NCBI GenBank assembly: GCA_026125665.1
Contig: JAHCKS010000051.1
Location: forward strand, 1-35,812
DNA length: 35,812 bases
From: Rubrivivax sp.
GTDB taxonomy: Bacteria > Pseudomonadota > Gammaproteobacteria > Burkholderiales > Burkholderiaceae_C
Direction: 5' to 3'
Made by a program: the position numbers and the translations under genes
The notes under the pieces: model-generated
Databases searched by the model: none
What the model was told of the DNA's origin: nothing
Seen by the model: only the letters and a program-made list of their open reading frames with translations
Shown here: positions 7,895 through 35,812 of the stretch, in pieces
How positions within the stretch are numbered: position 1 is the first letter of the stretch
How the letters are laid out: each line of letters opens with the position of its first letter

Positions 7895-7912
7895 AAACCC
7901 GGGCCCCCCGGG
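7895..7912 (-). terminator. Terminator-like hairpin after the mannitol dehydrogenase-family gene
   Basis: On the minus strand a CCCGGG-GGG-CCCGGG hairpin is followed immediately by TTT. It lies 27-44 bp after the stop at 7939 and upstream of the operator palindrome. The T-run is short, so termination may be weak. It supports a transcription boundary between the manD group and the gntR-TRAP group. Confidence 0.4.
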
Positions 7913-7938
7913 CCGGGGCACGCCCGGCGGCCATCGCG

Positions 7939-9543: not shown

Positions 9544-9563
9544 GCGCGCCTTCGTTCCCCGGG

Positions 9564-10775: not shown

Positions 10776-10851
10776 GGGTCGGACACGGAACCGCTCGCGT
10801 CGGCGCCCATCGACATCGAGGCAGAGGCGCCGAAGGCGCTTCGCGGGTGGG

Positions 10852-11760: not shown

Positions 11761-11784
11761 CGCCGGTTCTCCTTGACTCGGGGT

Positions 11785-12528: not shown

Positions 12529-12574
12529 GTCGGTCTCCTCGGATGATTGTGTCTACCGCCGGTGCTTCGCGCCT

Positions 12575-12630
12575 TGACTTCGCTGCGCGAAGTCAGCCTG
12601 CAACGCAACCGTCGAGCGGCTGCGCCGCTC
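12575..12630. repeat. Two perfect hairpins after the IlvD/Edd dehydratase gene
   Basis: Hairpin 1 is TGACTTCGC-TGC-GCGAAGTCA at 12575-12595. Hairpin 2 is GAGCGGC-TGC-GCCGCTC at 12614-12630 and includes part of the dehydratase stop codon. Both are perfect and share the TGC loop closed by GC pairs. No T-run follows on the minus strand, so they are better read as mRNA-stabilising or processing structures than as intrinsic terminators. Confidence 0.65.
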
Positions 12631-16635: not shown

Positions 16636-17193
16636 ATGGCGGCCTGGCGCATCGTCGTGATGGGCGTCAGCGGCTGCGGCAAGAGCACGGTCGGCCGCGC
16701 GCTGGCCGAGGCGCTGGGCGCGCGCTTCGTCGAAGGCGACGAGCTGCACCCGCCGCAGAACGTGGCGCGCATGGCCGCCGGCGTGCCGCTGACCGACGCC
16801 GACCGCGCCGGCTGGCTGGACGACATCGGCCGCGTGCTGGCCGAGGCCGGGGCACCCGGGGCGGCCGGCGGGGTGGTCGTGTCGTGCTCGGCGCTCAAGC
16901 GCGCCTACCGCGACCGCCTGCGCGCCGCCGCGCCCGGCGTGCTGTTCGCGCACCTGCACGGCCCGCGCGAGCTGCTGCAGGCACGGCTGGCGCAGCGCCG
17001 CGGCCACTACATGCCGGCTTCGCTGCTGCAAAGCCAGTTCGAGGCCTTGCAGCCCCCGGCCGACGACGAGGGGGCGCTGGCGGCGGACATCGCGCTGGCG
17101 CCCCAGGCCATCGTCACGAGCCTGCTCGCGCAGCTCGGCGTGGCGCCGGCGCCCACCGAAGCAACACCACCCGTGCCGGACGTGCAGCCATGA
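16636..17193 (+). CDS. gntK: Gluconokinase
   Basis: 185 residues from ATG at 16636. The P-loop GVSGCGKST is near residue 10. EGDELHPPQNVARMAAGVPLTDADRAGWL is the classic GntK substrate segment, followed by VVSCSALKRAYRDRLR and an RRGHYMPASLLQSQFEALQPP lid. It phosphorylates gluconate at O6 to 6-phosphogluconate, feeding the Entner-Doudoroff or pentose phosphate route. Its stop overlaps the next start by ATGA (17190-17193), so the two are translationally coupled. The pairing of gluconokinase with a 5-ketogluconate reductase mirrors idnK-idnO of enteric bacteria. A C-terminal Pro/Ala-rich tail exceeds the usual ~175 residues slightly. Confidence 0.93.
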   Translation: MAAWRIVVMGVSGCGKSTVGRALAEALGARFVEGDELHPPQNVARMAAGVPLTDADRAGWLDDIGRVLAEAGAPGAAGGVVVSCSALKRAYRDRLRAAAPGVLFAHLHGPRELLQARLAQRRGHYMPASLLQSQFEALQPPADDEGALAADIALAPQAIVTSLLAQLGVAPAPTEATPPVPDVQP

Positions 17194-17963
17194 CGATCGA
17201 CGCGCAGACCTTCCGCCTCGACGGCCGCCTCGCGCTCGTCACGGGCTCGTCGGCCGGCATCGGCCTGGCGCTGGCGCGCGGCCTCGGCCAGGCCGGCGCC
17301 GTGCTGGCGCTGAACGGCCGCGACACGGCGAAGCTGCAGCGCGCCGCCGCGATGCTGCGCGCCGAGGGCCTCGTCGTGCACGAGTGCCCGTTCGACACCA
17401 CCGACGCCGCCGCCGTGGCCGCGGCGGTGGCGCGGCTCGAGGCCTCCGCCGGCGCCATCGACATCCTCGTCAACAACGCCGGCATCACGCGCCGCGCCCC
17501 GTTCCCCGAGCTGAAGGCCGAGGACTGGCACGACGTGCTGCACACCAACCTCGACGGCCTGTTCATCGTCGGCCAGGCCGTGGCGCGGCGCATGATCGAG
17601 CGCCGGCGCGGCAGCATCATCAACATCTGCTCGGTGCAAAGCGACGTCGGCCGCCCCGGGCTCGCGGCCTACGCCACCAGCAAGGGCGGCGCGAAGATGC
17701 TGACCAAGGCGATGGCCATCGACCTCGCGCCGCACGGCATCCGCGTCAACGCCATCGGCCCGGGCTACTTCAAGACGGAGCTCACCGCGGCGCTGGTGGC
17801 CGACGAGCAGTTCAATGCCTGGCTCGTCGGCCGCACGCCACAGCGCCGCTGGGGCGACGTGGCCGAGCTGGCGCCGGCGGCGGTGTTCCTGGCCAGCGAC
17901 GCGGCGAGCTTCGTCAACGGCCACGTCCTCTACATCGACGGCGGCCTGACGGCCACGCTCTGA
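17190..17963 (+). CDS. idnO: Gluconate 5-dehydrogenase / 5-ketogluconate reductase-like SDR
   Basis: 257 residues from ATG at 17190, overlapping the gluconokinase stop by 4 bp. Motifs: TGSSAGIG (18-25), NGRD with Arg44 after strand beta-2 (NADP preference), NNAGITRRAPFPEL, and Ser148-Tyr161-Lys165. The ending RTPQRRWGDVAELAPAAVFLASDAASFVNGHVLYIDGG is close to gluconate 5-dehydrogenases. It reduces 5-keto-D-gluconate to D-gluconate, which the adjacent kinase phosphorylates. The family is certain. The assignment to 5-ketogluconate rests on sequence resemblance and coupling to gntK. Confidence 0.87.
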   Translation: MTIDAQTFRLDGRLALVTGSSAGIGLALARGLGQAGAVLALNGRDTAKLQRAAAMLRAEGLVVHECPFDTTDAAAVAAAVARLEASAGAIDILVNNAGITRRAPFPELKAEDWHDVLHTNLDGLFIVGQAVARRMIERRRGSIINICSVQSDVGRPGLAAYATSKGGAKMLTKAMAIDLAPHGIRVNAIGPGYFKTELTAALVADEQFNAWLVGRTPQRRWGDVAELAPAAVFLASDAASFVNGHVLYIDGGLTATL

Positions 17964-19241: not shown

Positions 19242-20252
19242 ATGCCGCCCGCCGACCTGCTTGCCCTGTACCGCACGATGGCGCGCATCCGCGCCTTCGA
19301 AGAAGCGGCCGAGGCCGCCAGCCAGGGCGGCGTGCAGGTGCTCGGCGCCGCCGCCGGCGCCGTGCCGGCCAAGGTGCGCGGGCCGCTGCACCTGTCGATC
19401 GGCCAGGAGGCGGTGGCCGCCGGCGTCTGCGCGCATCTCGAACGCGCCGACCTGCTGACCAGCACGCACCGCGGCCACGGCCACACGCTGGCCAAGGGCG
19501 CCGACGTCAACCGCATGATGGCCGAACTGTTCGGCAGGAGCGGCGGGCACAACGGCGGCAAGGGCGGCTCGATGCACATCGCCGACTTCTCGGTCGGCAT
19601 GCTCGGCGCCAACGGCGTCGTCGGCGCCGGCCTGCCGATCGCCTGCGGCGCGGCGCACGCGCTGAAGATCCGCGGCCTGCCGCAGATCGTCGCCTGCTTC
19701 TTCGGCGACGGCGCGGTGAACCGCGGCCCTTTCCTCGAGGCGCTGAACTGGGCCGCGGTGTACACGCTGCCGGTGCTTTTCGTCTGCGAGGACAACCGCT
19801 GGTCGGCGACGACGGTGACCGGCCCGCTCACGGCCGGCGAAGGCGCGGCGGCACGGGCGCGCGCCATCGGCGTGCCGGCCGAGGCGGTGGAAGGCAACGA
19901 CGTCGAGGCCGTGTCGGCACTCGCGGCGCGCCTGGTGGCCGAGGTGCGTGGCGGCGGCGGCCCGCGCTTCGTGCACGCCTTGACCTGGCGCGTGAAGGGC
20001 CACGTGTCGGTGGATGGCCAGGGCTACCGCGACCCGGCCGAGATCAACGCGGCGCGCACCGCCGATCCGCTGGCGCGGGCCCGTGCGCGGCTGCTCGCCC
20101 AGGGCCTGGCGCCCGCGGAGATCGACCCCATCGACGCGGCGGCGCGCGACGAGATCGACGCTGCACTTCGTTTTGCCGAAACCTCGCCGCCGCCCGAGCC
20201 GGCCGCGGCCTACGACGACGTGCAGACGCTGGGGGCGGGACTGTGGAGGTGA
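19242..20252 (+). CDS. Thiamine-dependent 2-oxoacid dehydrogenase E1 alpha subunit (AcoA/PdhA-like)
   Basis: 336 residues from ATG at 19242, preceded by GAAGGAA at a slightly long 12-nt spacing; ATG 19206, overlapping the regulator stop, would add 12 residues with no family match. The TPP motif begins GDGAVNRGPFLEALNWAAV and ends in the Asn of CEDNRW. THRGHGHTLAKG and HNGGKGGSMHIAD are standard E1 alpha segments. An insertion of about ten residues (EAASQGGVQVLGAAAGAVPAK) precedes the usual HLSIGQEA. E1 decarboxylates a 2-oxo acid or acetoin-like compound and passes the acyl group to E2. It overlaps the beta gene by GTGA (20249-20252). Confidence 0.9.
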   Translation: MPPADLLALYRTMARIRAFEEAAEAASQGGVQVLGAAAGAVPAKVRGPLHLSIGQEAVAAGVCAHLERADLLTSTHRGHGHTLAKGADVNRMMAELFGRSGGHNGGKGGSMHIADFSVGMLGANGVVGAGLPIACGAAHALKIRGLPQIVACFFGDGAVNRGPFLEALNWAAVYTLPVLFVCEDNRWSATTVTGPLTAGEGAAARARAIGVPAEAVEGNDVEAVSALAARLVAEVRGGGGPRFVHALTWRVKGHVSVDGQGYRDPAEINAARTADPLARARARLLAQGLAPAEIDPIDAAARDEIDAALRFAETSPPPEPAAAYDDVQTLGAGLWR

Positions 20253-21256
20253 ACGCTATCGACGGACACGGCGCGGCCGGCGGGCCGCCGGGTGCCGTGC
20301 AGACGATGACCTGCGCCGAGGCCGCCGCCGCGGCGCTGGCCGACGCGATGGCCGCGGACGAGCGCATCGTCGCGCTCGGCGAGGACCTCGGCCGCGGCGG
20401 CATCTTCGGCCAGTACCAGGGCCTCGCGCAGCGCTTCGGCGCGGCGCGTGTCATCGACACCCCCATCTCCGAGAGCACGATCATGGGCGCCGCGGTGGGC
20501 ATGGCGCTCGCGGGTCTCAGGCCCGTCGTCGAGATGCGCGTCGCCGACTTCGCGATGTGCGCGATGGACGAGATCGTCAACCAGGCGGCGAAGAACCGCT
20601 ACATGTTCGGCGGCCAGGGCCGCGTGAACCTCGTCGCGCGGCTGCCGATCGGCCTGTGGGGCGGCTCGGCGGCGCAGCACTCGCAGAGCTTCGAGGCCTG
20701 GTTCGCGCACCTGCCGGGCGTGGTGGTGCTGTGCCCGAGCACGCCGCAGGACAGCTACACGATGCTGCGTGCCGCGCTCGCCGGCGACGACCCGGTGATC
20801 CACATGGAGCACAAGGAGCTGTGGGGGCGGAAGGGCCCGGTGGACCGCGGCGCGGCCGCGATGCTCGGCCGCGCGCGCACGCTGCGGCAAGGGCGCGACC
20901 TCACGATCGTCACCTGGTCGGCCGCGGTGCACGTCGTGAACGACGCCGCGGCGGCGCTCGCTGCCGGGGGCATCGACGCGAGCGTCATCGACCTCGGCAC
21001 GATCTGGCCGTGGGACCGCGACGCCGTGTGCGCCGACGCGGCGCGCACCGGCCGGCTGCTGGTCGTGCACGAGGCGGTGCAGGCGGCCGGATTCGGCGCC
21101 GAGGTGGCCGCGAGCGTGGCCGAGCACACCGGCTGCCGCGTCGCGCGCCTGGGCGCGCCGCGTGTGCCGGTGGGGTATGCGGCGGCGCTGGAGGACGAGG
21201 TGCGGCTCGGGGTGCAGGGCGTCGTGCGGGCGGCAACGGCGATCCTCGCGCGATGA
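20249..21256 (+). CDS. Thiamine-dependent 2-oxoacid dehydrogenase E1 beta subunit (AcoB/PdhB-like)
   Basis: 335 residues from a GTG at 20249 overlapping the alpha stop; GGAG lies directly upstream, and family homology begins near an internal ATG at 20306. Landmarks: ERIVALGEDLGRGGIFGQYQGL, DTPISESTIMGAAVGMA, MDEIVNQAAKNRYMFGG, AQHSQSFEAWFAHLPGVVV and HMEHKELW. It forms the alpha2beta2 heterotetramer with the preceding gene. No E2 (lipoyl acyltransferase) or E3 follows: an Rhs fragment begins within 10 bp of the stop. The complex must use E2/E3 encoded elsewhere, act as a stand-alone decarboxylase, or have lost its partners. Confidence 0.9.
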   Translation: MNAIDGHGAAGGPPGAVQTMTCAEAAAAALADAMAADERIVALGEDLGRGGIFGQYQGLAQRFGAARVIDTPISESTIMGAAVGMALAGLRPVVEMRVADFAMCAMDEIVNQAAKNRYMFGGQGRVNLVARLPIGLWGGSAAQHSQSFEAWFAHLPGVVVLCPSTPQDSYTMLRAALAGDDPVIHMEHKELWGRKGPVDRGAAAMLGRARTLRQGRDLTIVTWSAAVHVVNDAAAALAAGGIDASVIDLGTIWPWDRDAVCADAARTGRLLVVHEAVQAAGFGAEVAASVAEHTGCRVARLGAPRVPVGYAAALEDEVRLGVQGVVRAATAILAR

Positions 21257-24774: not shown

Positions 24775-25536
24775 TCAGTGGATGTGGCTGCCGCCGTTGA
24801 TGTCGATCTCGCTGCCCGTGACGTAGCTCGCCAGGTCGCTGGCCAGGAAGAGGGCGCACCCGGCCACTTCGTGCGCGTGCCCGGGCCGGCCCATCGGCAC
24901 GCCGGCGACGATCTGCGCCAGGCGCTCGGGCGTCATCAGCGCGCCGGCGATGTCGGTGTCGATGTAGCTCGGGCAGATGGCGTTGACGCGGATGTTGTCG
25001 GGCCCGAGCTCGCGCGCCGCCGCCTTGGTGTAGCCGAGCACCGCGGCCTTGGCCGCCGAATAGTGGCTGCCGCCGAACACGCCGCCGCCGCGCTGCGCGC
25101 TGACGCTGCTGAGGTTGACGATGCTGCCCGCCTTCTGCCTGCGCATCTGCGGCACCACGGCCTGCGTCATGTACAGCGTGCCGCGCATGTTGATGTCGAA
25201 GATGCGCTCGTAGGTGGCGTCGTCCACCTCCATCAGGCGCTGCGGGCTGGTGATGCCGGCGATGTTCACCAGCACGTCGATGCGGCCCCAGGCCGCGAGG
25301 GCCTGTTCGACCAGGGCTTCGCAGTCGGCGCGCTTCGTCACGTCGCAGCGCGCGCTCAGGTGGCCCCGCTCCCGGCCTCCGGGCAGGCCGGCCGCGGCGG
25401 CGGCCGCGGCCTCGGCGGAGAGGTCGGAGATCTGCACCCTGGCGCCGTGTTCGGCGAACAGCCTGGCGCAGGCCAGCCCGAGGCCGCGCGGGCTGGCGGC
25501 GCCGGTGATGAGGGCAGTGCGGTCTTTCAGCAGCAT
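24775..25536 (-). CDS. SDR-family oxidoreductase
   Basis: 253 residues from ATG at 25536. The cofactor loop is TGAASPRGLG, slightly longer than the usual TGxxxGIG. Asp38 after strand beta-2 suggests NAD, and the catalytic set is Ser144-Tyr159-Lys163 (NLSS...HYSAAK). NICPSYIDTDI-like (AICPSYIDTDI) and GSEIDINGG endings are normal for classical SDRs. It is the last gene of the ABC-transporter/transketolase block, 23 bp after the transketolase stop. It probably interconverts a hydroxyl and a ketone on the imported sugar or sugar acid; the substrate is not recognisable. Confidence 0.88.
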   Translation of the reverse strand: MLLKDRTALITGAASPRGLGLACARLFAEHGARVQISDLSAEAAAAAAAGLPGGRERGHLSARCDVTKRADCEALVEQALAAWGRIDVLVNIAGITSPQRLMEVDDATYERIFDINMRGTLYMTQAVVPQMRRQKAGSIVNLSSVSAQRGGGVFGGSHYSAAKAAVLGYTKAAARELGPDNIRVNAICPSYIDTDIAGALMTPERLAQIVAGVPMGRPGHAHEVAGCALFLASDLASYVTGSEIDINGGSHIH

Positions 25537-25559
25537 CGTGTCGTTCCGAGGTGAGGAGG

Positions 25560-27611
25560 TCAGTTCGGGGCCGCTTCGGGGCGGGCCGCGCGCGCCAGGC
25601 CCTGCCGGGCGGCGGCCACCACGGCTTCGACCGTGATGCCGAAGTGGCGGTACAGCTCGTCGGCCGGGCCCGAGGCGCCGAAGCCGGCCATGCCGACGAA
25701 GGCGCCGCGCTCGCCGAGCCAGCGCTCCCAGCCGAAGCGCACGGCAGCCTCGACGGCGACGCGCATCGTGCCCGGGCCGAGCACGTGTTGTTGCCAGGCG
25801 CTGTCCTGCTGCTCGAAGAGCTCCCAGCACGGCATCGAGACGACGGCGGTGGGTACGCCTTCGGCCTGCAGGCGCGCGCGCGCCTGCACCGCGAGCGCCA
25901 CCTCGGAGCCGGTGGCCAGCAGCGTGACGCGGCGCGCGCCGCCGGCGGCCTCGGCCAGTACGTAGGCGCCGCGGCGGCAGAGGTTCTCGGCGGCCGAGCT
26001 GCCGGTGCCCGCGGCCTCGCGCACGCGCGGCAGCGCCTGGCGCGCGAAGACGAGGCTCACCGGGCCGGCGCGATGCTCGAGCGCGATCTCCCAGCATTCG
26101 GCGGCCTCGACGATGTCGGCCGGGCGCATGACCAGCATGTCGGGCATGGCGCGCAGCGCGGCGAGCATCTCCACCGGCTGGTGCGTCGGCCCGTTGCGGC
26201 CGATGCCGATGGAGTCGTGGCTGAAGACGAACTTCACCGGCAACCGCATCAGCGCGGCCATGCGCAGCGCCGGGCGCTCGTAGTCGCTGAAGGCGAAGTA
26301 CGTGACGGCCACCGGCAGCGTGCCGCCGTGCGCGGCCATGCCGTTGGCCATCGCGCCCATCACGTGCTCGCGCACGCCGCAATGCAGGTAGCGACCGGCG
26401 CGGTCGGTGGCGGTGAAGGCGGTGACGCCGCGCTTGTGGCTCGTCGGCGCCTCGAGGTCGGGGCAGAGCACGAAGCGCTCGGGCAGCACGTCGTTCAGCC
26501 GCTCGTGGATCGCGGAGGAAAGGAAGATGCCGCTTTGCGTGGCACCGGCCTGGGCACTGGCCGGCTCGGCGGCCAGCGCGGCGCGCTTGTGCTCGAGCAG
26601 CACGTTGCGCCAGCCGGCCGGCAGCTCGCCGCGCTGCACGCGCTCGAACTCGGCGCGTCCGGCGGCGGGCAGGGCGGCGACGCGCGCGCGCCAGGCGTCG
26701 TGTGCCGGGCGGCTGCGCGCGCCGGCGTCGCGCCACGCCTGCAGCACCGCGGCCGGCACTTCGAAGGGCGGGTGCGGCCAGCCGAGCGCTTCGCGCGCGG
26801 CCTGCGCGTCGGCCTCGAAGAGCTTCGCGCTGTGCCCGCCGCGCTGGCCCTCGAGCCGCGTGATGCCGCGCGCGATGACCGTGCGGCAGGCGATCAGCGA
26901 CGGCCGTGGATCCTCCTTGGCCGCGGCGATGGCGGCCGACACGGCCTCGATGTCGTGCCCGTCGACTTCCTGCACGTGCCACTGTGCGACGCGGAAGCGC
27001 TCGGGCACGCTCTCGCTGATCGAGAGCTCGGTCGAGCCGTCGTCGGTGATGCGGTTGTCGTCCCACAGGAACGTCAGCTTGGCCAGGCGCAGGTGGCCGG
27101 CGAGCGCGATCGCCTCCTGGCCGACGCCTTCCTGCAGGCAGCCGTCGCCGACGAAGGCCCAGGTGCGGTGGTCGACGAGGCTGCCGCCGAAGCGTGCGTT
27201 CAGATGCGCCTCTGCCACCGCCATGCCGAGCGCATTGGCGATGCCCTGGCCGAGCAGGCCGGTGGTGAGCTCGATGCCGGCGGCGGGGTCGATCTCCGGG
27301 TGGCCGGCGGTGTGCGCGCCGAGCTCGCGAAAGCGCCGGATCTGCTCGAGCGTGATGCGCTCGTAGCCGCTCAGGTGCAGCAGTGCGTACAGCAGCATCG
27401 AGCCGTGGCCGTTGGAGAGCACGACGCGGTCGCGGTCGGGCCACAGCGGGTCGGCCGGGTCGTGCTTCAGGTGCCGCGTGTACAGCGCCGTGGCGATCTC
27501 GGCCATGCCGAGCGGCACGCCCTGGTGGCCCTCGCCGGCGCGCACGATGGCGTCGATGGCGAGGAAGCGGATGGCGTGGGCGAGAGGCTGCAGCGGATGG
27601 GCTGGCGGCAT
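25560..27611 (-). CDS. Divergent transketolase
   Basis: 683 residues from ATG at 27611, full-length and single-chain. Thiamine binding is intact: GDG (155-157) with Asn186, and catalytic Glu415 (GVREH). His27-region (GEGHQG), NGHGS, TAGHPE, His260, His465 and Arg524 are kept. Against E. coli TktA compared from memory, substrate-side positions differ. The Asp of GEDGPTHQP is Asn473 here (GRNGPTHQP), the phosphate-contacting Arg near 358 is replaced (GATQSG), and GSADL becomes LCPDL. Normal transketolases move a two-carbon unit between phosphorylated sugars. These changes suggest a non-phosphorylated or otherwise unusual substrate. It lies between a beta-hydroxyacid dehydrogenase (33 bp) and an SDR (23 bp) in an importer operon. 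Confidence 0.88.
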
Positions 27612-27644
27612 CGCGGAAGCGGCGGGTGCGCAGCGCCGCGCCGC

Positions 27645-28598
27645 TCAGGCGGCGCGCTCGGTGGCGGCCGGGGGCACGGCGTTCATGGCGGCGACGAAGT
27701 CGGCGAGCATCGGCACGAAACGATCGCCCTGGCCGGCTGCCTCCATCGCCGCGAAGCTGTGGCGCACGCCGGCCTGCAGCGGCGTGACGAGGCCGAGCTC
27801 GGCCGCCATCGTCGCCAGGTAGCGCATGTCCTTGTGCGCGTTGGCGATGGTGAAGAGGTGCGCCTTCTCGTCGCCGACGAGCGAGTACTGGATGAAGGTG
27901 TCGTAGAACGGGCTGCGCATGCGGCCCGAGCCGATGACCGAGTGGAACTGCTGCACGCTCAGGCCGGCCTTGCGCGCGATGGCCAGCGCCTCGGCGAAGA
28001 GCGCCGCGTAGCCCATCGCGACGAAGTTGTTGACGAGCTTCATCTTGTGCCCCAGGCCCACGGGCCCGAGGTGCACGACGTTGCCGGCCCAGCAGCGGAT
28101 GACGGGCTCGATGCGCGCGAAGACCTCCGGCGGCGCGCCGACCATCGTGTCCAGCGTGCCGGCTTCGGCCTCCTTCGGCGTGCGCGACAGCGGCGCGTCG
28201 ACGAAGTGCACGCCGCGTGCTTCGCACTCGGCGGCGAGGGCCAGCGTGCTGACCGGGTTGGACGTGGAGCAGTCGATGATGACGAGCCCGGGGCGTGCGC
28301 CGGCGAGCAGCCCTTGTTCGCCGCGCACCACGGCCTCGACCTGCGGCGAGCCGGTGACGCACAGGTGCACGATGTCGCACAACGCGGCCAGCTCGCGCGG
28401 CGTGGCCGCCTCGCGGGCCCCGAGCCCCTTCAGCCGTTCCACCGGCTCGCGGTTGCGATGGCCCGTCACGACGAGCGGATAGCCCTTCGTCACGAGGTTC
28501 TTCGCCATGCCGGCGCCCATCAGGCCGACGCCGATGAAGCCGATCGTCGGCCGCGGGCCGGCGTCATCGCCGGCCGTGGGCTTCGCCGCCGCATTCAC
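27645..28598 (-). CDS. Beta-hydroxyacid dehydrogenase, DAPLSRTP subtype (paralogue of 10852-11760)
   Basis: 317 residues from a GTG at 28598 that overlaps the upstream stop by GTGA, implying coupled translation. A ~17-residue polar leader precedes IGFIGVGLMGAGMAKNL, with HRNR again suggesting NADP. Catalytic Lys187 lies in GHKMKLVNN. The substrate loop is DAPLSRTP (134-141) in place of DAPVSGG, as in the gene at 10852-11760. It acts on a beta-hydroxy or beta-keto acid. Direct fusion-like coupling to the LtnD-like gene suggests consecutive or alternative steps on a C3-C4 acid. Tartronate-semialdehyde reductase is a possible pipeline label, but the loop is atypical for it. Confidence 0.88.
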   Translation of the reverse strand: MNAAAKPTAGDDAGPRPTIGFIGVGLMGAGMAKNLVTKGYPLVVTGHRNREPVERLKGLGAREAATPRELAALCDIVHLCVTGSPQVEAVVRGEQGLLAGARPGLVIIDCSTSNPVSTLALAAECEARGVHFVDAPLSRTPKEAEAGTLDTMVGAPPEVFARIEPVIRCWAGNVVHLGPVGLGHKMKLVNNFVAMGYAALFAEALAIARKAGLSVQQFHSVIGSGRMRSPFYDTFIQYSLVGDEKAHLFTIANAHKDMRYLATMAAELGLVTPLQAGVRHSFAAMEAAGQGDRFVPMLADFVAAMNAVPPAATERAA

Positions 28599-29488
28599 TT
28601 CTTCGGTCCCCCGACCTGCGCGCCGTTCAGCGCCCGGTAGGCGCGGATCACCTGGCTGTCGTCGGCCGCGCCGTGGCCGAGGCCCGACGCGGCGAGGAAC
28701 ATCTGCATCGCCGCGGCGGCGAGCGGCAGGCCCTGGCGCATCTGCTTGCCCTGGTCGAGCACGATGCCGAGGTCCTTGACGAAGATGTCGACGGCGCTCG
28801 TCACCGGCGGGTCCTCCTGCATCATGCGCGGGCCGCGGTCGCCCCACATCCAGCTGTTGCCGGCCGAGACCGAGATGATCTCGTGCATCGTCTTCTTGTC
28901 GACACCGGCGCGTTCGGCCACGTGCATGGCCTCGGCCGCGGCGGCGATGTGCACGCCGCACAGCAGCTGGTTGATCATCTTCGCCGTGCTGCCCATGCCG
29001 GCTTCGCGGCCGACGTCGAAGATGCGCTTGCCCACCGCCTCGAACACCGGTCGTGCGCGGTTGATGGTGCCTTCGGGGCCGCTCACCATGACCGTGAGGC
29101 CCGCGGCCTGCGCGCCGGCGACGCCGCCGCTCACGGGCGCGTCGAGCATCGTCAGGCCCATCTGCGCAAGGCGGCCCGCGGTGCGCGCCGCGAGCGCCGG
29201 CGGCTGCGTGCAGGCGGCAACGACAATGGCGCCCGGCGGCAGCGCGGCGGCCGCGCCGAGGTCGAACAGCACGGCCTCGGCCTGCTCGCCGCTCACCACC
29301 ATCAGCCACAGCAGCTCGGCTTCGCGCGCCGCCTCGGCCGCCGACGCAGCGCCGCGCCCGCCGGCCGCCATCAGCGGCTCCACGGCGGTGGGGCGCACGT
29401 CGAAACCACGCACCTCGTGGCCGGCCTTTACCAGGTTGACGGCCATCGGCACGCCCATCGCGCCCAGGCCGATGAATGCAATGCGCAT
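28595..29488 (-). CDS. ltnD: L-threonate dehydrogenase-like beta-hydroxyacid dehydrogenase
   Basis: 297 residues from ATG at 29488. Rossmann motif IAFIGLGAMGVPMA with FDVR after strand beta-2 indicates NAD. The canonical substrate loop DAPVSGG (117-122) and Lys170 (GSTAKMINQLL) are present. The stretches GVHIAAAAEAMHVAERAGVD, SAGNSWMWGDRGPRM, SAVDIFVKDLGIVLD and GHGAADDSQVI match the LtnD branch that oxidises L-threonate to 2-oxo-tetronate. In known pathways LtnD works with an isomerase (OtnI), a kinase (OtnK) and an aldolase (OtnC). An otnK gene lies divergently at the right edge. It is the first enzyme gene after the ABC transporter (46 bp). Confidence 0.88.
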   Translation of the reverse strand: MRIAFIGLGAMGVPMAVNLVKAGHEVRGFDVRPTAVEPLMAAGGRGAASAAEAAREAELLWLMVVSGEQAEAVLFDLGAAAALPPGAIVVAACTQPPALAARTAGRLAQMGLTMLDAPVSGGVAGAQAAGLTVMVSGPEGTINRARPVFEAVGKRIFDVGREAGMGSTAKMINQLLCGVHIAAAAEAMHVAERAGVDKKTMHEIISVSAGNSWMWGDRGPRMMQEDPPVTSAVDIFVKDLGIVLDQGKQMRQGLPLAAAAMQMFLAASGLGHGAADDSQVIRAYRALNGAQVGGPKK

Positions 29489-29534
29489 CGCGCGCTCCTC
29501 GAGAACGGACCGTGTGAACGAAGGAGAGGGCGCG

Positions 29535-30440
29535 CTATTCCTTCACCGCCCCGGTCATCGCCGAGACGTAGTGCTCGACGAAGAAGGCGTAGAGGATCAC
29601 GAGCGGCAGCGAACCGACCAGCGCGCCGGCCATCAGCGAACCCCAGCGGTACTGGTCACCGTCGGTGAAGGCCGACAGGATGGCCACCGGCACCGTCTTC
29701 TTCTCGGCGCTGTTGATGAAGGTCAGCGCGTAGATGAACTCGTTCCAGCACAGCGTGAGGCAGAAGATCGACGCCGAGATGAGGCCGGGCACCGCCAGCG
29801 GCAGGATGATCTTCACCAGGATCTGCCAGCGGCTCGCACCGTCGATCAGCGCGCACTCCTCCAGCTCGTACGGGATGGTCTTGAAGTAGCCCATCAGCAG
29901 CCAGGTGGAGAACGGGATCAGGATCGTCGGGTAGGTGAGGATCAGCGCGAACGGGGTGTCGAAGAGGCCGTACTGGAACACCACCGTGGACAGCGGGATG
30001 AAGAGGATCGACGGCGGCACCAGGTAGGCGAGGAAGATCATGCCGCCCACGAGGTTGGCGCCCTTGTAGCGAACGCGCGTGATGGCGTAGGCGGCGAAGA
30101 CGCTCGCCACCAGCGACAGCAGCGTCGAGGCGACCGAGATGAACATCGTGTTCCACAGCCACTGCGGGTACTCGGTCTTGAACAGCAGGTCCTTGATGTG
30201 CTCGAGTGTCGGCGCCACCGTCCAGAACGGGTTGTGCGTGTCGAGGTCGAGCAGATGCTCCTTCGGCTTGATGGCGGTGATGACCATCCAGTAGAAGGGA
30301 AACAGCAGCACGACGACGATCAGCGCCAGCGGCATGTAGACCGTCACCACGCGCTGCGGCAGCGTGCTGAGGTAGCTCATGCCCTCCGTGTGGTCGGCGG
30401 GCGTCGCCGCCGCAGCGGGCTTGGCGACGGCGTCGCTCAT
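29535..30440 (-). CDS. ABC sugar transporter permease (MalG/UgpE-like)
   Basis: 301 residues from ATG at 30440, overlapping the upstream permease stop by ATGA. Six membrane spans are expected; visible segments begin at LALIVVVLLFPFYWMVI. The cytoplasmic EAA loop is YELEECALIDGASRWQILVKIILPLAVPG, which docks on the ATPase. It forms half of the inner-membrane channel of a CUT1-type importer. As the following genes handle C4-type acids and a transketolase substrate, the cargo may be a sugar acid, polyol or small glycan rather than maltose. Confidence 0.95.
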   Translation of the reverse strand: MSDAVAKPAAAATPADHTEGMSYLSTLPQRVVTVYMPLALIVVVLLFPFYWMVITAIKPKEHLLDLDTHNPFWTVAPTLEHIKDLLFKTEYPQWLWNTMFISVASTLLSLVASVFAAYAITRVRYKGANLVGGMIFLAYLVPPSILFIPLSTVVFQYGLFDTPFALILTYPTILIPFSTWLLMGYFKTIPYELEECALIDGASRWQILVKIILPLAVPGLISASIFCLTLCWNEFIYALTFINSAEKKTVPVAILSAFTDGDQYRWGSLMAGALVGSLPLVILYAFFVEHYVSAMTGAVKE

Positions 30441-31351
30441 GCGTCCTCCCCCTGCTGCCACTTGCGCCGCTGCAGGCCGAACCACGACACCATGATCGCC
30501 GCCAGCAGGAACGGCACCATCGCCGTGGACACCGCGGCGCCTTCGCCGATGCGCCCGCCGAGGATGGCGGTGTTGTAGGACATCGTCGCCATCAGCTCGG
30601 TGGCGCCGGCCGGGCCGCCGTTGGTGAGCACCTTGATGAGCTGGAAGTCGGTGAAGGTGAACAGCACCGAGAAGGTCATCACCACGGCGATGATGGGCGT
30701 CAGCAGCGGGTAGGTGATCTTGACGAACATCTGCCAGCGCGTGGCGCCGTCGAGCGTGGCCGCCTCGTACAGCGACGGCGGCACCGTCTGCAGGCCGGCG
30801 AGCAGCGAGATGGCGATGAACGGCACGCCGCGCCAGACGTTGGCGAAGATGACGCTCCAGCGCGCGTTCCAGGCGTCGCCGAGAAAGTCGATGTTGCCGT
30901 CGATGAAGCCGAGCTGGCGCAGGCTCCAGCTGATGATCGAGAACTGCGGGTCGAAGATCCACCAGAAGGCGATCGCGCTGAGCACCGTGGGCACGATGAA
31001 CGGGATCAGCACGACGGCGCGGATGATGGCCTTGAACGGCAGGTGCTGGTTCAGCAGCAGCGCCAGGTACAGGCCGAGCCCGAACTTCACGACGCTGGCA
31101 AAGAACGTGTAGAAGAGGGTGAAGAAGACGGCCGTCTGGAACTTCGAGTCGCCGATGATCCAGATGTAGTTCTCGAGGCCGACGAACTCGCCGGGGCGGC
31201 CGATCTTCGAATCGGTGAAGCTGAGCCAGATGCCCAGCCCGAGCGGATAGACGAGGAACAGCACCAGGAAGGCGGCCGCCGGCAGCATGAAGAGCCAGCC
31301 GACGAGGTTGCGGTTGGCGCCCCAGCGGGCCAGGCGGTCGGCCGAGACCAT
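30437..31351 (-). CDS. ABC sugar transporter permease (MalF/UgpA-like)
   Basis: 304 residues from ATG at 31351. The first span is WLFMLPAAAFLVLFLVYPLGLG, followed by a periplasmic stretch with WLSFTDSKIGRPGEFVGLENY, usual for this type. The EAA loop is SLYEAATLDGATRWQMFVKITYPLLTP. It pairs with the next permease, which it overlaps by 4 bp. It starts 43 bp after the substrate-binding protein stop. Confidence 0.95.
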   Translation of the reverse strand: MVSADRLARWGANRNLVGWLFMLPAAAFLVLFLVYPLGLGIWLSFTDSKIGRPGEFVGLENYIWIIGDSKFQTAVFFTLFYTFFASVVKFGLGLYLALLLNQHLPFKAIIRAVVLIPFIVPTVLSAIAFWWIFDPQFSIISWSLRQLGFIDGNIDFLGDAWNARWSVIFANVWRGVPFIAISLLAGLQTVPPSLYEAATLDGATRWQMFVKITYPLLTPIIAVVMTFSVLFTFTDFQLIKVLTNGGPAGATELMATMSYNTAILGGRIGEGAAVSTAMVPFLLAAIMVSWFGLQRRKWQQGEDA

Positions 31352-31394
31352 CTCAGCGTCCTTCCGGTGCTTGTCCGCTCGTTCCGCGCCCTGC

Positions 31395-32735
31395 TCAGCG
31401 GTAGATGCGCCGGGCCTGCCGCTCGGCCACGGCGATCGCTTCCTTCACCGATGCGCGGCCGGTGGCTACCGAGGCAAACATGTCGAGCACGACGAAGTCG
31501 GCCAGCGCCGAAGCCGCCTTCTCGCCCACCGAGCCGAGGCCGCCGGCGGTCAACGTGCGCTTGGCGACGTCGCGCACGAGGCTCAGCTTGGGGTCGCTCG
31601 TCCACACCTTGTTCGCGTCGTAGGCGTTGAGCGGGTGCGTCAGGTAGGCCACCGAGTCCTCGAGCCACTGGTTGTAGTTCTCGGCCTCGAGCATGAAGGC
31701 CATGAAGGCCTTGCCGGCGTTCGGCACCTTGCTGTATCGCATCAGCATCAGCGGGTAGGCGATGTGGAACTCGGTGGGCTTGCCGACAGGACCCACGGGC
31801 CACAGCGCGTGGTTCATGTCGTCCATGATCTCCTTCATCTTGGCGTCGCCCTTGGCGGCGCCTGCCTTGGCCGCGGCGTAGATGGACACGCCGTTGTTGG
31901 TGAGGCTCACCTCGCCCGTGAGGAAGGCCTTGTTGTTGAAGGCGTCGTTCCACGAGGCAGTGCCGCTGACGAAGTGGTCGGACATCTCCTTCACGTACTC
32001 GAGCGCCTTCACCGTCTCGGGCGAGTTGATGATGACCTTGTCCTTGGCGTCGACGAGGTTGCCGCCGTGCGACCACAGCGCCCAGTGCACCCACGCGTTG
32101 CCGTCGCCCGAGGCACGCCCGAGCGCGAAGCCGCCCGGCACGCTCTTGGCCTTCAGGGCCTTCATCAGCTCGAGGAAGCCGGCGGTGTCCTTCGGCACCT
32201 CCTTGAAGCCGGCCTTCTCGATCATGCTCTGGCGGTAGTTGATGACGTTGCCGTTGTAGGCCACGGGGATGGCGATCCACTTGCCGCCGCCCTTGCCGTA
32301 GGTCTCGGCCGAGGGCACCCAGCCGCCGTACTTCTTGCCCAGATAGTTGGCGACGTCGGTCACGTCCACCACCTTGGTCGGGAACAGGTGCGGCAGCGAG
32401 TACAGACCCCAGAAGAGGTCCGGGCCCTGGCCGGTGTTGGCCGACACGCTGGCCTTGGGCTGCACGTCGTCCAGGCTCTCGTGCGTGACCTTCACCTCGA
32501 CGCCCGTGGCCTTGCTGAAGGCGTCCACCAGCTTCATGAAGCTGTCTTCCTCGGCCTGGATGAACCGCTTCCAGCGCATCAGCGAAAGCTTGGCGCCCTT
32601 CTCGGGCTTGAACGGCGAGCTTTGCGCCCAGGCCTGGGCGAAGGCCAGCAGGTTCGCCGCGCTTGCGGCGGCCAGGGCTGCGCCGCCCTTCAGGACGCCG
32701 CGGCGGTTGAGGTTCTTCAGGGGGCTTTGCATCAT
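31395..32735 (-). CDS. ABC transporter extracellular solute-binding protein (family 1-like)
   Basis: 446 residues from the first of two ATGs at 32735, with AGGAGA upstream. The N-terminus has a twin-arginine-type signal (NRRGVLKGGAALAAAS...AQAWAQ), so export may be Tat-dependent. The mature protein shows FMKLVDAFSKATGVEVKV, GQGPDLFWGLYSLPHLFP, WIAIPVAYNGNVINYRQSM and ALWPVGPVGKPTEFHIAYP, typical of CUT1 binding proteins. It captures the substrate in the periplasm for the two permeases. The ligand cannot be read from sequence. Confidence 0.93.
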   Translation of the reverse strand: MMQSPLKNLNRRGVLKGGAALAAASAANLLAFAQAWAQSSPFKPEKGAKLSLMRWKRFIQAEEDSFMKLVDAFSKATGVEVKVTHESLDDVQPKASVSANTGQGPDLFWGLYSLPHLFPTKVVDVTDVANYLGKKYGGWVPSAETYGKGGGKWIAIPVAYNGNVINYRQSMIEKAGFKEVPKDTAGFLELMKALKAKSVPGGFALGRASGDGNAWVHWALWSHGGNLVDAKDKVIINSPETVKALEYVKEMSDHFVSGTASWNDAFNNKAFLTGEVSLTNNGVSIYAAAKAGAAKGDAKMKEIMDDMNHALWPVGPVGKPTEFHIAYPLMLMRYSKVPNAGKAFMAFMLEAENYNQWLEDSVAYLTHPLNAYDANKVWTSDPKLSLVRDVAKRTLTAGGLGSVGEKAASALADFVVLDMFASVATGRASVKEAIAVAERQARRIYR

Positions 32736-32821
32736 CGCTGTGTCTCCTGCTTCAGGCTCGATGGGCCGCTGACCGGCCGGTGGCGAAGTGGATCGTCGGG
32801 GTGGAAAGGCGCGCGGCGGCC

Positions 32822-33883
<1,062 letters not shown>

Positions 33884-34106
33884 CAGGGCAGGGCCGCGCC
33901 GGAACCGGAGCGGTGATGCGAAGTGGGTTGGGACGAAGGGCGAGAAAAGGTGGTCGACAGCACGTGGCCGCCGCCGGCACGGACGTGGCGCCATGGCCGG
34001 CCCGCGCACGTGGCGACGGGGCGAACCATAAGCCGCGGGCGAGCGCATCCGCTTCAGGGCAAACCCTTTATTCATGCGATGAAAGTTGTCTGATAACCTG
34101 ACGAGT
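33884..34106. promoter_or_regulatory. Divergent promoter region with FadR-type operator
   Basis: The gap separates the leftward ABC/transketolase block from the rightward gntR-otnK pair. Its only A/T-rich part (about 34066-34097) contains the palindrome GTTGTCTGATAAC at 34085-34097. Five of six arm pairs match, and the core TTGTCTGATAA is one mismatch from TNGTNNNACNA. Two CACGTGGC octamers occur at 33961-33968 and 34007-34014. Binding by the adjacent regulator would control both directions. Confidence 0.55.
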
Positions 34107-34886
34107 ATGGAAACGGCCGCTGGGGGCGTGCGCGGCGTCGGGGCCGGCTGGGCGCCCGTGCGCCTGTCCGACCGCCTTGCCGCGGCGCTGACCGAGCAGA
34201 TCGACAGCGGGGCGCTGCGCCCCGGCGACCGCCTGCCCACCGAGGCGCAGCTGGCCGTGCAGCACGGCGTGTCGCGCTCCGTCGTGCGCGAGGCCGTGCA
34301 GCGCATCAAGTCGCGGGGCCTGCTGCTCTCGCGCCAGGGGTCCGGCGTCTACGTGGCGCCGCCGCCGGCGCACCGGCCGCTCGCCTTCGACCCGGCGGTG
34401 CTCGAGTCGATGGACGCCGTGGTGCAGGTGGTGGAGCTGCGCCGCGTGCTGGAAGGCGAGATCGCGGCGCTCGCGGCCGAGCGCAGCACGCGCGCACAGC
34501 AGGCCGGGCTTCGGCGCGCACTGAAGGCCATCGACGCCGCGATGGCCGCCGGCCACGACGGGGTCGAGGAGGACATGGCGTTCCACCGCGCCATCGGCGA
34601 GGCGACCGGCAACCCGCAGTTCAGCCGCCTGCTGGCCTTCCTCGAGCAGTACCTGCGCGAGGCGATGCGCATCACCAAGGGCAACGAATCGCGGCGCGAG
34701 GACTTCATGCGCCAGGTGCGCGAGGAGCACCGCGCGATCGTCGCTGCCGTGGAGGCACGCGACGCACAGGCGGCGCGCGCCGCGGCCGTCGAGCATCTCA
34801 TCAACGGTGAGCGGCGGCTGGTTGCCGGCGGCGTGGTGCGCCGTGGCGCGGCCGACGTGGCGCGGCGGCGCCGCGCGCCGCGCTGA
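34107..34886 (+). CDS. GntR-family (FadR/FCD) transcriptional regulator
   Basis: 259 residues from ATG at 34107; an in-frame TTG at 34086 would lie inside the operator-like palindrome and is unlikely. The DNA-binding domain is RLAAALTEQIDSGALRPGDRLPTEAQLAVQHGVSRSVVREAVQRIKSRGLLL. The FCD domain has VELRRVLEGEIAALAAERS, MAFHRAIGEATGN, EEHRAIVAAVEARD and AVEHLI, giving the usual three metal-binding His. It is 33 bp upstream of otnK and divergent from the ABC block. It probably represses both in the absence of a tetronate-type inducer. Confidence 0.92.
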   Translation: METAAGGVRGVGAGWAPVRLSDRLAAALTEQIDSGALRPGDRLPTEAQLAVQHGVSRSVVREAVQRIKSRGLLLSRQGSGVYVAPPPAHRPLAFDPAVLESMDAVVQVVELRRVLEGEIAALAAERSTRAQQAGLRRALKAIDAAMAAGHDGVEEDMAFHRAIGEATGNPQFSRLLAFLEQYLREAMRITKGNESRREDFMRQVREEHRAIVAAVEARDAQAARAAAVEHLINGERRLVAGGVVRRGAADVARRRRAPR

Positions 34887-34919: not shown

Positions 34920-35812
34920 ATGCCAGCCACGCGCGTCACGCTCGGCGTTGTTGCCGACGACTTCACCGGCGCCACCGATGTCGCCAGCATGCTCGTGCGC
35001 GGCGGCCTGCGCACCGTGCAGCTGATCGGCCTGCCCGACGATGGCAACGCGGCGGCCGCGGCCGGTGCCGACGCGGTGGTCGTGGCGCTGAAGTCGCGCA
35101 CGATTCCCGCGGCCGACGCCGTGGCGCAGTCGCTGGCCGCGTGGCGCTGGCTGCGCGCGGCGGGTGCCTCGCGCTGCTACTTCAAGTACTGCTCGACCTT
35201 CGACTCGACGCCGGCCGGCAACATCGGCCCGGTCGCCGAGGCGCTGATGCGCGAGCTCGGCACCGACTTCACGATCGCCTGCCCGGCGTTCCCGGAGAAC
35301 GGGCGCACGATCTTCCGTGGCCACCTGTTCGTAGGTGACCAGCTGCTGTCGGACTCGGGCATGCGCGACCATCCGCTGACGCCGATGCGCGACAGCAACC
35401 TCGTGCGCGTGCTGCAGGCGCAGTGCGAAAGCGGCACGCGGGTCGGCCTGCTGCGCTACGACACGGTGGCCCGTGGCGCGGCCGCGGTGCGCGAGCGGGT
35501 CGCGGCGCTGCGCGCCGAGGGGGTGCGCATCGCGATCGCCGACGCGCTGCACGACGACGACCTGCGCACGCTGGCCGAAGGCTGCGGCGAGCTGCCGCTG
35601 CTGACCGCCGGCTCCGGACTGGCGCTGGGCCTGCCCGAGCTCTTCGAGCGGCAGGGCCTGCTCAGGCGCCATGCCGACGCCGCGACGCTCGAAGCGATGC
35701 GCGGGCCGGCGCTGGTGCTCGCCGGCTCCTGCTCGCAGGCGACGAACGCGCAGGTGGCGCACTGGCGCGCCGCCGGCCGGCCGGCGCGCGCGCTCGACGT
35801 GCGCGCCCTGCT
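34920..35812 (+). CDS. otnK: 3-oxo-tetronate kinase, DUF1537 family (C-terminus outside window)
   Basis: ATG at 34920 with AGAGGG upstream; 297 complete codons are visible and the frame runs off the right edge. The N-terminal acid-sugar-binding domain is clear: VADDFTGATDVASMLV, CYFKYCSTFDSTPAGNIGPVAEAL, CPAFPENGRTIFRGHLFVGD and HPLTPMRDSNLV. LLTAGSGLALGL and LVLAGSCSQAT lead toward the nucleotide-binding domain, which is cut. DUF1537 kinases phosphorylate 3-oxo-tetronate, D-threonate or related four-carbon acids at O4. These motifs fit the OtnK branch, and an LtnD-like gene lies across the divergent promoter. OtnC (aldolase/decarboxylase) and OtnI (isomerase) would be expected just beyond the window. 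Confidence 0.93.
   Translation, partial: MPATRVTLGVVADDFTGATDVASMLVRGGLRTVQLIGLPDDGNAAAAAGADAVVVALKSRTIPAADAVAQSLAAWRWLRAAGASRCYFKYCSTFDSTPAGNIGPVAEALMRELGTDFTIACPAFPENGRTIFRGHLFVGDQLLSDSGMRDHPLTPMRDSNLVRVLQAQCESGTRVGLLRYDTVARGAAAVRERVAALRAEGVRIAIADALHDDDLRTLAEGCGELPLLTAGSGLALGLPELFERQGLLRRHADAATLEAMRGPALVLAGSCSQATNAQVAHWRAAGRPARALDVRAL

What the first reader, a model, noticed from the sequence alone, without database searches (positions are those of the whole stretch)
24775..34886. Transketolase-centred sugar-acid system with LtnD, an atypical beta-hydroxyacid dehydrogenase, an ABC importer and divergent otnK
Known L-threonate/tetronate pathways use LtnD, OtnI, OtnK and OtnC; a dedicated transketolase and an SDR are not part of them. 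Here importer, LtnD, a coupled atypical dehydrogenase, transketolase and SDR form one leftward run sharing a divergent promoter with a FadR regulator and otnK. A speculative scheme: a C5-C6 keto acid is imported and made by the SDR, the transketolase splits off a two-carbon unit (5-ketogluconate cleavage to tartrate semialdehyde by transketolase is known from Gluconobacter), and the remaining C3-C4 acid is processed by the dehydrogenases and OtnK. This would be a new route.
Basis: partly seen in the sequence, partly recalled or inferred. Interest (0 to 1): 0.72.

Follow-up and report, generated by a model that had tools for sequence, protein, structure and literature searches.

The report
Transketolase cassette for sugar-acid breakdown
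The window holds a sugar-acid import-and-breakdown operon built around an unusual transketolase that has lost part of the usual phosphate-binding site and that, in many other bacteria, sits beside a dehydrogenase, a second split transketolase and an acid importer, which hints at a way of breaking down sugar acids two carbons at a time.

Summary
The operon is real: ABC importer, LtnD-like and second beta-hydroxyacid dehydrogenases, transketolase (TK), SDR, leftward; FadR and otnK diverge. otnK is cut by the contig end; contig C57 carries its C-terminus, then otnC-like, denD, SDR and MFS genes. The TK is not the housekeeping type. It belongs to a separate clade (SH-aLRT 100). In the alignment used, 53 of 53 clade members have Asn for Asp469 and no Arg358 (Ile in 50, E. 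coli numbering), while 52 of 52 other TKs keep D and R. R358I is one of three changes in an engineered TK that cuts 5-ketogluconate. In 36 of 45 well-flanked clade loci, and 0 of 16 control loci, the neighbourhood holds SDR + split TK (two genes) + TRAP binding protein. Linkage to OtnK is rare: the window and one Marivita locus. Best reading: the SDR makes an oxo-aldonate, the TK moves its terminal two carbons to an acceptor, and beta-HADs reduce the remaining semialdehyde; here the module has joined a tetronate (OtnK) pathway. Chemistry and substrate are inferred, not shown.

The parts
24775..25536 (-). SDR1, short-chain dehydrogenase proposed to oxidise the sugar acid; 50-64% identical SDRs in 40 of 45 well-flanked TK cassettes loci, 83% in L044
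25560..27611 (-). clade-A transketolase, 683 aa; ThDP and pyrimidine domains over cut-off; Asp469->Asn, Glu468->Arg, no Arg at 358 (Ile), Ser385 replaced (E. coli numbering)
   Evidence: (663.0 bits, cut-off 682.25)
27645..28598 (-). second beta-hydroxyacid dehydrogenase (HAD2), GTG start overlapping the preceding gene by 4 bp; best named family tartronate semialdehyde reductase, far under cut-off
28595..29488 (-). LtnD-like beta-hydroxyacid dehydrogenase (325.1 bits, cut-off 350)
29535..30440 (-). ABC permease (carbohydrate type, MalG/UgpE/GlcU-like)
30437..31351 (-). ABC permease (UgpA/MalF-like)
31395..32735 (-). ABC solute-binding protein (SBP_bac_8 140 bits); a TAT-signal match is under the curated cut-off (20.5 of 22.7)
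32822..33883 (-). ABC ATPase, UgpC/MalK type (494.7 bits, cut-off 432)
33884..34085 (.). 202-bp divergent intergenic region (223 bp if FadR starts at the ATG at 34107)
34086..34886 (+). FadR/GntR-FCD regulator
34920..35812 (+). otnK N-terminal part (3-oxo-tetronate kinase, 448.3 bits, cut-off 350), cut by the contig end

Best explanation
The leftward operon is an ABC-importer version of a proteobacterial sugar-acid cassette. Proposed working: (1) the importer brings in a non-phosphorylated aldonate-type acid; (2) SDR1 oxidises the hydroxyl next to the terminal CH2OH, giving a ketose-type acid (HOCH2-CO-CHOH-...-COOH); (3) the clade-A transketolase, which has lost Arg358 and the acceptor contact Asp469 and gained basic residues in the same loops, takes the terminal two carbons as the ThDP-bound ketol and gives them to an aldose phosphate, so that they enter the pentose phosphate pool; (4) the acid semialdehyde left (tartrate semialdehyde from C6, tartronate semialdehyde from C5, glyoxylate from C4) is reduced by the beta-HADs, in other genomes perhaps by a D-2-hydroxyacid dehydrogenase; (5) in this genome a C4 product or co-substrate would pass to the divergent tetronate route (DenD, OtnK, OtnC) to DHAP. 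Shown here: gene content, operon geometry, clade, residue changes, conserved linkage. Inferred: every chemical step and the substrate.
For: Separate clade: in a 58-row tree the 28 window-type TKs are one side of a branch with SH-aLRT 100. Plasmid records: the 25 rows listed run from 71.7 to 62.0% identity (15 records) and then drop to 51.5%; the tally counts 16 records at 60-80%, the sixteenth not among the rows shown. Residues in the multiple alignment: Asp469->Asn 53 of 53, Glu468->K 25, R 19, S 8, T 1, Arg358 absent in 53 of 53 (Ile 50, W 1, V 1, Y 1), Ser385 absent in 53 of 53 (P 49, A 4), His-Lys in that loop 53 of 53; the other TKs 52 of 52 D, E, R, S. The numbering was checked by counting along the chain 2r5n, Transketolase 1. 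H26, H66, E411 and H473 are kept in 53 of 53. R358I is one of three changes of an engineered E. coli TK that converts 5-ketogluconate to tartaric semialdehyde (PMC12016104, passages). Linkage: 45 clade-A loci with 6 kb or more on both sides: SDR 42, TKn 39, TKc 39, DctP 39, LysR 39, D-2-hydroxyacid dehydrogenase 23; all four core genes 36 of 45 against 0 of 16 control TK loci (Fisher p 1e-8, loci not independent). 23 of 29 control loci hold gap, pgk, fba or rpe genes (labels by eye), against 0 of the 51 clade-A loci. Transport: one DctP2 protein (L047) is nearest in sequence to 4pdd, 4pdh and 4p9k, recalled as D-erythronate complexes; 9 of 16 loci read around relatives of the window's ABC binding protein hold an L-arabinonate-dehydratase-type gene. 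Precedent for two-carbon stripping of an acidic sugar: sulfo-TK pathway (PMC9594981, passages).
Against: No activity or ligand is shown for any protein. His461 (53 of 53) and Arg520 (52 of 53), also phosphate ligands in E. coli TktA (recalled), are kept, so phosphosugars may still bind; the engineered 5-ketogluconate enzyme changed both. HMMER's pairwise alignment places a gap near 358 and puts Thr, not Pro, opposite Ser385, which would be a mild change; Asp469 and Glu468 lie in a gap-free stretch in either alignment. The usual cassette has two transketolases; the window operon has one (a split pair is alone on C201), which the scheme does not explain. Neither beta-HAD of the operon reaches a curated cut-off. 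9 of 45 loci lack at least one of the four core genes; in 2 of 6 clade members taken from even genome samples no SDR or split TK lies in the 20 kb read. By structure, the DctP2 model ranks other TRAP binding proteins (4p47, 4pf8, 4p1l) above 4pdd. No OtnI lies in the locus.
Confidence: 0.48

Rival explanations
1. Tetronate short cut: SDR1 oxidises a tetronate at C3 to 3-oxo-tetronate, and the TK splits it into glyoxylate plus a two-carbon unit, competing with OtnK for the same intermediate. A special case of the best explanation with a C4 substrate.
For: OtnK (448.3, cut-off 350) in the window and DenD (354.6, cut-off 325) on C57; one TRAP binding protein of the cassettes is nearest in sequence to structures recalled as D-erythronate complexes; Asp469->Asn with Glu468->Lys/Arg would suit a carboxylate next to the reacting carbon (inference); the D-2-hydroxyacid dehydrogenase tested (L050) matches 2-hydroxyacid dehydrogenase and glyoxylate reductase models, all under cut-off.
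Against: OtnK, DenD and OtnC each occur in 1 of 45 well-flanked loci; L093, with a shorter flank, also has a DenD-like ORF (41%). Where both occur the TK would be redundant with OtnK/OtnC; ligands in TRAP binding-protein structures may be co-purified (PMC11668362, section 5).
Confidence: 0.2
2. Branched acid: the cassette handles a 2-C-hydroxymethyl tetronic acid (apionate/isoapionate type). SDR1, or in a few genomes a DXR-like (DRL) enzyme, makes 3-oxo-isoapionate; the TK cuts it to hydroxypyruvate, which the D-2-hydroxyacid dehydrogenase reduces to glycerate for a glycerate kinase.
For: DRL-type gene in 5 of 65 loci and glycerate-2-kinase-like gene in 4 of 65, D-2-hydroxyacid dehydrogenase in 30 of 65 (each family named from one member); DctP1 of L050 is very close to 4oan (E 3e-127), recalled as modelled with acetolactate, a branched C5 keto acid; split transketolases are recalled from D-apiose catabolism (AptAB).
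Against: Nothing in the window itself points to a branched substrate; the DRL protein of L086 matched no NCBIfam family at E 1e-8; the glycerate-kinase-like protein is under cut-off (205.6 of 550); the 4oan title was cut before the ligand.
Confidence: 0.15
3. Ordinary transketolase paralogue: the TK only supplies extra pentose-phosphate capacity during growth on sugar acids, acting on the usual phosphosugars.
For: 46-47% identity to the genome's own two other full-length TKs; His461/Arg520 and the catalytic positions kept.
Against: Asp469 replaced in 53 of 53 and Arg358 absent in 53 of 53; linked to importer and SDR, not to pentose-phosphate or Calvin-cycle genes.
Confidence: 0.13
4. Sulfo-sugar transketolase: the operon strips a sulfonated sugar as in the sulfo-TK route, with HAD2 as a sulfolactaldehyde-type reductase.
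For: HAD2 matches sulfolactaldehyde 3-reductase (154.9 bits); a window gene (15532-16608) matches L-sulfolactate dehydrogenase weakly (198.7); two-carbon stripping is the sulfo-TK logic.
Against: 154.9 and 198.7 are far below their cut-offs (348, 500), and the second protein meets the malate/lactate/ureidoglycolate dehydrogenase cut-off (481 of 336); the divergent operon is a carboxylate (tetronate) pathway. I saw no sulfoglycolysis gene by eye among the called genes but ran no family search for them.
Confidence: 0.04

Closest known systems
L-threonate/D-erythronate (LtnD/DenD-OtnI-OtnK-OtnC) pathway
   Same: OtnK and DenD reach curated cut-offs, OtnC nearly (231.7 of 250)
   Different: [quoted passage not shown] the word does not occur in its main text); here LtnD is only LtnD-like and no OtnI lies in the locus, though a C190 protein passes the OtnI cut-off as well as that of hydroxypyruvate isomerase
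Sulfo-TK pathway (SqwGH) for sulfoquinovose
   Same: a transketolase strips two-carbon units from an acidic non-phosphorylated sugar into the pentose phosphate pool (PMC9594981, passages)
   Different: sulfonate, not carboxylate; no sulfonate gene seen here by eye
Engineered E. coli TktA R358I/H461S/R520Q on 5-ketogluconate (PMC12016104, passages)
   Same: Ile at 358 occurs naturally in 50 of 53 clade members
   Different: H461 and R520 are kept in clade A; Glu468 and Asp469 are changed as well
D-apiose/D-apionate catabolism (AptAB recalled; apionate oxidoisomerase and 3-oxoisoapionate kinase in a passage of PMC11747546)
   Same: a split transketolase and, in 5 of 65 loci, a DXR-like gene accompany the clade-A TK
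   Different: no such gene in the window; the window kinase matches OtnK (448.3), not OiaK (89.4, cut-off 700)

Membership tests
3-oxo-tetronate (OtnK) pathway | OtnK kinase | tested here: met
   448.3 bits against cut-off 350, although truncated
3-oxo-tetronate (OtnK) pathway | tetronate dehydrogenase (LtnD or DenD) | tested here: met
   DenD on C57 354.6 against 325; window LtnD-like 325.1 against 350, not reached
3-oxo-tetronate (OtnK) pathway | OtnC decarboxylase | tested here: inconclusive
   231.7 against 250
3-oxo-tetronate (OtnK) pathway | OtnI isomerase | tested here: inconclusive
   a genome search with one OtnI-type query found a C190 protein and a weak C229 match; the C190 protein scores 351.8 (cut-off 325) as OtnI but 382.9 (cut-off 353.45) as hydroxypyruvate isomerase and lies beside a tartronate semialdehyde reductase
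L-threonate dehydrogenase LtnD (window 28595-29488) | NCBIfam NF043037 cut-off 350 bits | tested here: not met
   325.1 bits; L084 LtnD meets it with 396.9
Bacterial transketolase (TktA type) | NCBIfam TIGR00232 cut-off 682.25 bits | tested here: not met
   663.0 bits
Bacterial transketolase (TktA type) | Arg358, Ser385, His461, Arg520 and Asp469 (roles recalled) | tested here: not met
   Asp469 and Arg358 replaced; Ser385 replaced by Pro (multiple alignment) or Thr (pairwise); His461 and Arg520 kept
Bacterial transketolase (TktA type) | ThDP-binding and pyrimidine domains | tested here: met
   PF00456 371.6 and PF02779 146.6 bits, over cut-off
Sulfo-TK pathway | split transketolase SqwGH | tested here: inconclusive
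   the operon TK is one chain; a split pair lies on C201 but no SqwGH reference was compared
Sulfo-TK pathway | sulfonate-sugar genes and SE isomerase | not tested
   looked at by eye only
Tartronate semialdehyde reductase (HAD2, 27645-28598) | NCBIfam TIGR01505 cut-off 340.75 or NF008592 cut-off 397 | tested here: not met
   172.5 and 178.9 bits
Transketolase acting on oxo-aldonates | cleavage of a non-phosphorylated oxo acid | not testable with these tools
   needs an enzyme assay

The most novel reading that the evidence does not exclude
Proteobacteria share an undescribed ketol-transfer route for sugar acids: an SDR oxidises the acid and a dedicated pair of transketolases (clade A plus a split enzyme), both without the full canonical phosphate site, strips it two carbons at a time into the pentose phosphate pool, the leftover oxo acid being reduced. 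It is the carboxylate counterpart of the sulfo-TK pathway, carried on chromosomes and plasmids with TRAP or ABC importers, and in the window it has merged with the OtnK tetronate route.
Probability: 0.4. Interest if true: 0.8.

Novelty: new variant of a known kind. Interest (0 to 1): 0.6.

Why it matters
If right, sugar acids have a kinase-free entry into the pentose phosphate pool that no pathway I know of describes, and nature already made the R358I change that engineers used for turning 5-ketogluconate into a tartrate precursor. The clade gives ready-made enzymes to test, and genes now annotated simply as 'tkt' (as in the plasmid records) would need a second look.

Tried and rejected
Considered and set aside: (a) chance adjacency of an ordinary TK - disfavoured by clade, residues and linkage. 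(b) H100 as a diagnostic position - dropped, Gly also occurs in 26 of 52 controls. My first placing of the R358 and S385 columns was wrong by a few columns; one search replaces it, and one search was run to check the numbering. (c) SDR identity by NCBIfam - not informative, best hits are FabG and 'glucose 1-dehydrogenase' type; solved structures likewise. (d) Ligands from PDB titles by structure search - titles were cut before the ligand, so the ligands of 4pdd, 4pdh, 4p9k and 4oan are recalled; the DctP1 model was weak (mean pLDDT 63.9), DctP2 86.2. (e) Window ABC binding protein against solved structures: only weak maltose/sugar-type matches. (f) Literature: ten searches, seen as listings and starts of abstracts. 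Those aimed at such a cassette or at TK with sugar acids listed no paper that describes it; the others asked about DUF1537/tetronates (25), PDB codes (42), sulfo-TK (43) and apionate (71). The library holds only open-licence papers, and four key papers were not held, so 'not in print' is not claimed.

Results against or limiting the reading: clade-A TKs are rare, in 4 of 399 genomes of the order sample and 5 of 398 of the phylum sample at 61% identity or more, own genome included in both; 4 of 24 congeners have a 71-75% match (a fifth, G024, has a 98-residue stretch at 65% that I did not follow). In one search a further 71 genomes matched at 48-54% and were taken as outside the clade by identity, not by residues. 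L179 and L084 have the TK without the split pair.

Rows left out: L080, L093 and L120 had no TK called and are absent from residue counts; L080 and L093 entered by ORF position. One search kept 80 of 586 confirmed stretches; 51 of the 80 were taken as clade A (58% identity or more), 29 as controls. Of 15 listed clade-A plasmid records 4 were opened (two had no annotation and were gene-called by script). Of 32 genomes with a binding-protein match (own included) 16 were read. Gene calls are by my own codon-usage script, not a standard caller; overlong N-termini occur. Gene-family labels come from single-linkage clusters at 38% identity and one named member each. The beta-HAD tree draws only on loci already fetched, warns of long branches, and the group of window LtnD with cassette beta-HADs beyond L044 has SH-aLRT 89 only.


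Full report
1. Observation. The window carries a leftward run ATPase - binding protein - two permeases - LtnD-like - HAD2 - transketolase - SDR1 with gaps between -4 and 86 bp, and, 202 bp away, a rightward FadR-type gene and otnK. otnK ends with the contig. The only other match to its C-terminal domain in the genome is at base 2 of contig C57, followed by an OtnC-like gene (231.7 bits, cut-off 250), DenD (354.6, cut-off 325), a second SDR and an MFS-like gene. The divergent side is therefore a near-complete tetronate pathway. The contigs' adjacency is an inference.

2. The transketolase is a distinct clade. It is 46-47% identical to the genome's two other full-length TKs, and 71-75% to TKs in 4 of 24 congeners. 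In one search, 51 of the 80 loci kept have 58-83% identity, mostly Burkholderiales, with Azospirillum, Rhodobacterales and a few others. Among the 25 plasmid records listed identity falls from 62.0% (15th) to 51.5% (16th). In a tree of 58 rows the 28 window-type rows form one side of a branch with SH-aLRT 100.

3. Active site. On an alignment of 105 TKs (53 clade A, 52 others), with columns placed and E. coli numbering checked by counting along the chain 2r5n (roles of the residues recalled): Asp469 is Asn in 53; Glu468 is K 25, R 19, S 8, T 1; Arg358 is Ile in 50 and W, V or Y in 3; Ser385 is Pro in 49 and Ala in 4; His-Lys follow in 53. In the 52 others D, E, R and S are invariant. His461 and His473 are kept in 53 of 53, Arg520 in 52 of 53. 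HMMER's pairwise alignment to 2r5n puts a gap near 358 and Thr opposite Ser385, so the Ser385 change may be mild; the 468-469 change does not depend on the alignment. An engineered TktA with R358I/H461S/R520Q converts 5-ketogluconate to tartaric semialdehyde (PMC12016104, passages seen). The partner split transketolase (TKc, 43 rows against 20 canonical) has Tyr at Ser385 and Gly at His461 in 43 of 43 and a gap at 468-469, while 25 of 43 keep Arg at 358 (a distant alignment).

4. Conserved neighbourhood. Of 65 clade-A loci examined (the window not counted), 45 have 6 kb or more on both sides. In these 45: SDR 42, TKn 39, TKc 39, DctP 39, LysR 39, DctM 36, D-2-hydroxyacid dehydrogenase 23, LtnD-like 8, DRL 4, glycerate-2-kinase-like 3, OtnI-type 2, OtnK, OtnC, DenD and HAD2 1 each. 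In 40 of the 45 the SDR is 50-64% identical to SDR1. In 16 control TK loci: none of SDR, TKn, TKc, DctP; LtnD-like 1, OtnI-type 1. 23 of 29 control loci, and 0 of the 51 clade-A loci, hold gap, pgk, fba or rpe genes (labels by eye). A typical order is LysR< TKn> TKc> SDR> DctP> DctQM> TK> 2HDH>, with permutations. Two annotated plasmid records carry it under generic names. From even genome samples, 4 of 6 further clade members have all four core genes and 2 have neither SDR nor split TK in the 20 kb read, though TRAP-type binding proteins (by eye) lie next to the TK. Loci are related by descent, so the Fisher value (1e-8) overstates independence.

5. What is special about the window. The nearest relative, L044 (83% TK, 83% SDR), has permeases, LtnD-like (70%), then the split TK, TK and SDR: the same operon with the split TK where the window has HAD2; its contig ends before any otnK could be seen. 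In the window genome a split TK pair stands alone on C201. HAD2's nearest kin are in G288 (82%), next to a related ABC importer and an L-arabinonate-dehydratase-type gene, with SDR2, DenD, OtnI and LtnD-type genes divergent and no TK match at E 1e-195 in that genome, and in Marivita L084 (55%), where TK, HAD2, DenD, OtnK, OtnC, certified LtnD and an OtnI-type gene (273.1, cut-off 325) lie within about 20 kb, with a gene nearest to L-idonate 5-dehydrogenase (343.4, cut-off 469). The window thus looks like a merger of three modules: sugar-acid ABC importer with HAD2, TK cassette with its beta-HAD and SDR1, and a tetronate operon (inference). Stretches around relatives of the ABC binding protein hold an L-arabinonate-dehydratase-type gene in 9 of 16 loci read; a gene of that kind is also in the window at 12629-14368.

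6. Mechanism. A TK donor needs HOCH2-CO-CHOH-; oxidation of an aldonate next to its terminal CH2OH gives that (general chemistry). The clade-A site would accept the carboxylate end in place of a phosphate end. Ketol transfer to a sugar phosphate leaves a semialdehyde acid two carbons shorter, for which reductases of the beta-HAD and D-2-hydroxyacid kinds are present in part of the cassettes. The sulfo-TK pathway does the same with a sulfonate (PMC9594981, passages). The substrate may be C4, C5, C6 or branched; the evidence for each is under the rivals. All chemistry is inference.

8. Novelty. Sugar breakdown by transketolase is known (sulfo-TK; D-apiose, recalled), so this is a new variant of a known kind. 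Six literature searches aimed at such a cassette listed nothing that describes it, in an open-licence library only.

9. Changes made on re-checking: best-explanation confidence lowered from 0.50 to 0.48 because the Ser385 change depends on the alignment; the other odds moved by 0.01 at most.

Noticed in passing
window 1-14368: Second sugar-acid cluster: UxaA-type dehydratase (partial; by eye), a gene like talarate/galactarate dehydratase (287.1, cut-off 500), TRAP importer (by eye), fructuronate-reductase-like gene (383.9, cut-off 603), ManD mannonate dehydratase (734.7, cut-off 550) and an L-arabinonate-dehydratase-type gene (854.5, cut-off 882).
   Followed up: partly
window 10852-11760 (-): A paralogue of HAD2 (49% identity) inside the mannonate/pentonate cluster.
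   Followed up: no
window 16636-17963 (+): Gluconokinase (189.5 bits, cut-off 113.75) directly before an SDR whose best named function is gluconate 5-dehydrogenase (304.7, cut-off 408): a conventional 5-ketogluconate route about 7 kb from the TK operon.
   Followed up: partly
window 19242-21256 (+): Two genes that look like acetoin/pyruvate dehydrogenase E1 alpha and beta subunits (by eye), another ThDP enzyme, next to a GntR-type regulator.
   Followed up: no
L129 11895-13792 (contig C201): Orphan split transketolase pair (TKn, TKc) of the window genome, without TRAP or SDR genes of the cassette nearby.
   Followed up: partly
L061: A second TKn-TKc pair with a beta-HAD downstream of a complete cassette in Caballeronia calidae.
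   Followed up: no
L058, L083, L086, L087, L125: A DRL-family (DXP-reductoisomerase-like) gene near the clade-A TK.
   Followed up: partly
L184, L185: Clade-A TK (61%) without SDR or split TK, near a CO-dehydrogenase-like gene set and two TRAP-type binding proteins (by eye), in two genomes of one unnamed genus.
   Followed up: no
G024:C25:24706-24996: A 98-residue stretch at 65% identity to the window TK in a fifth congener, perhaps a gene remnant or fragment.
   Followed up: no
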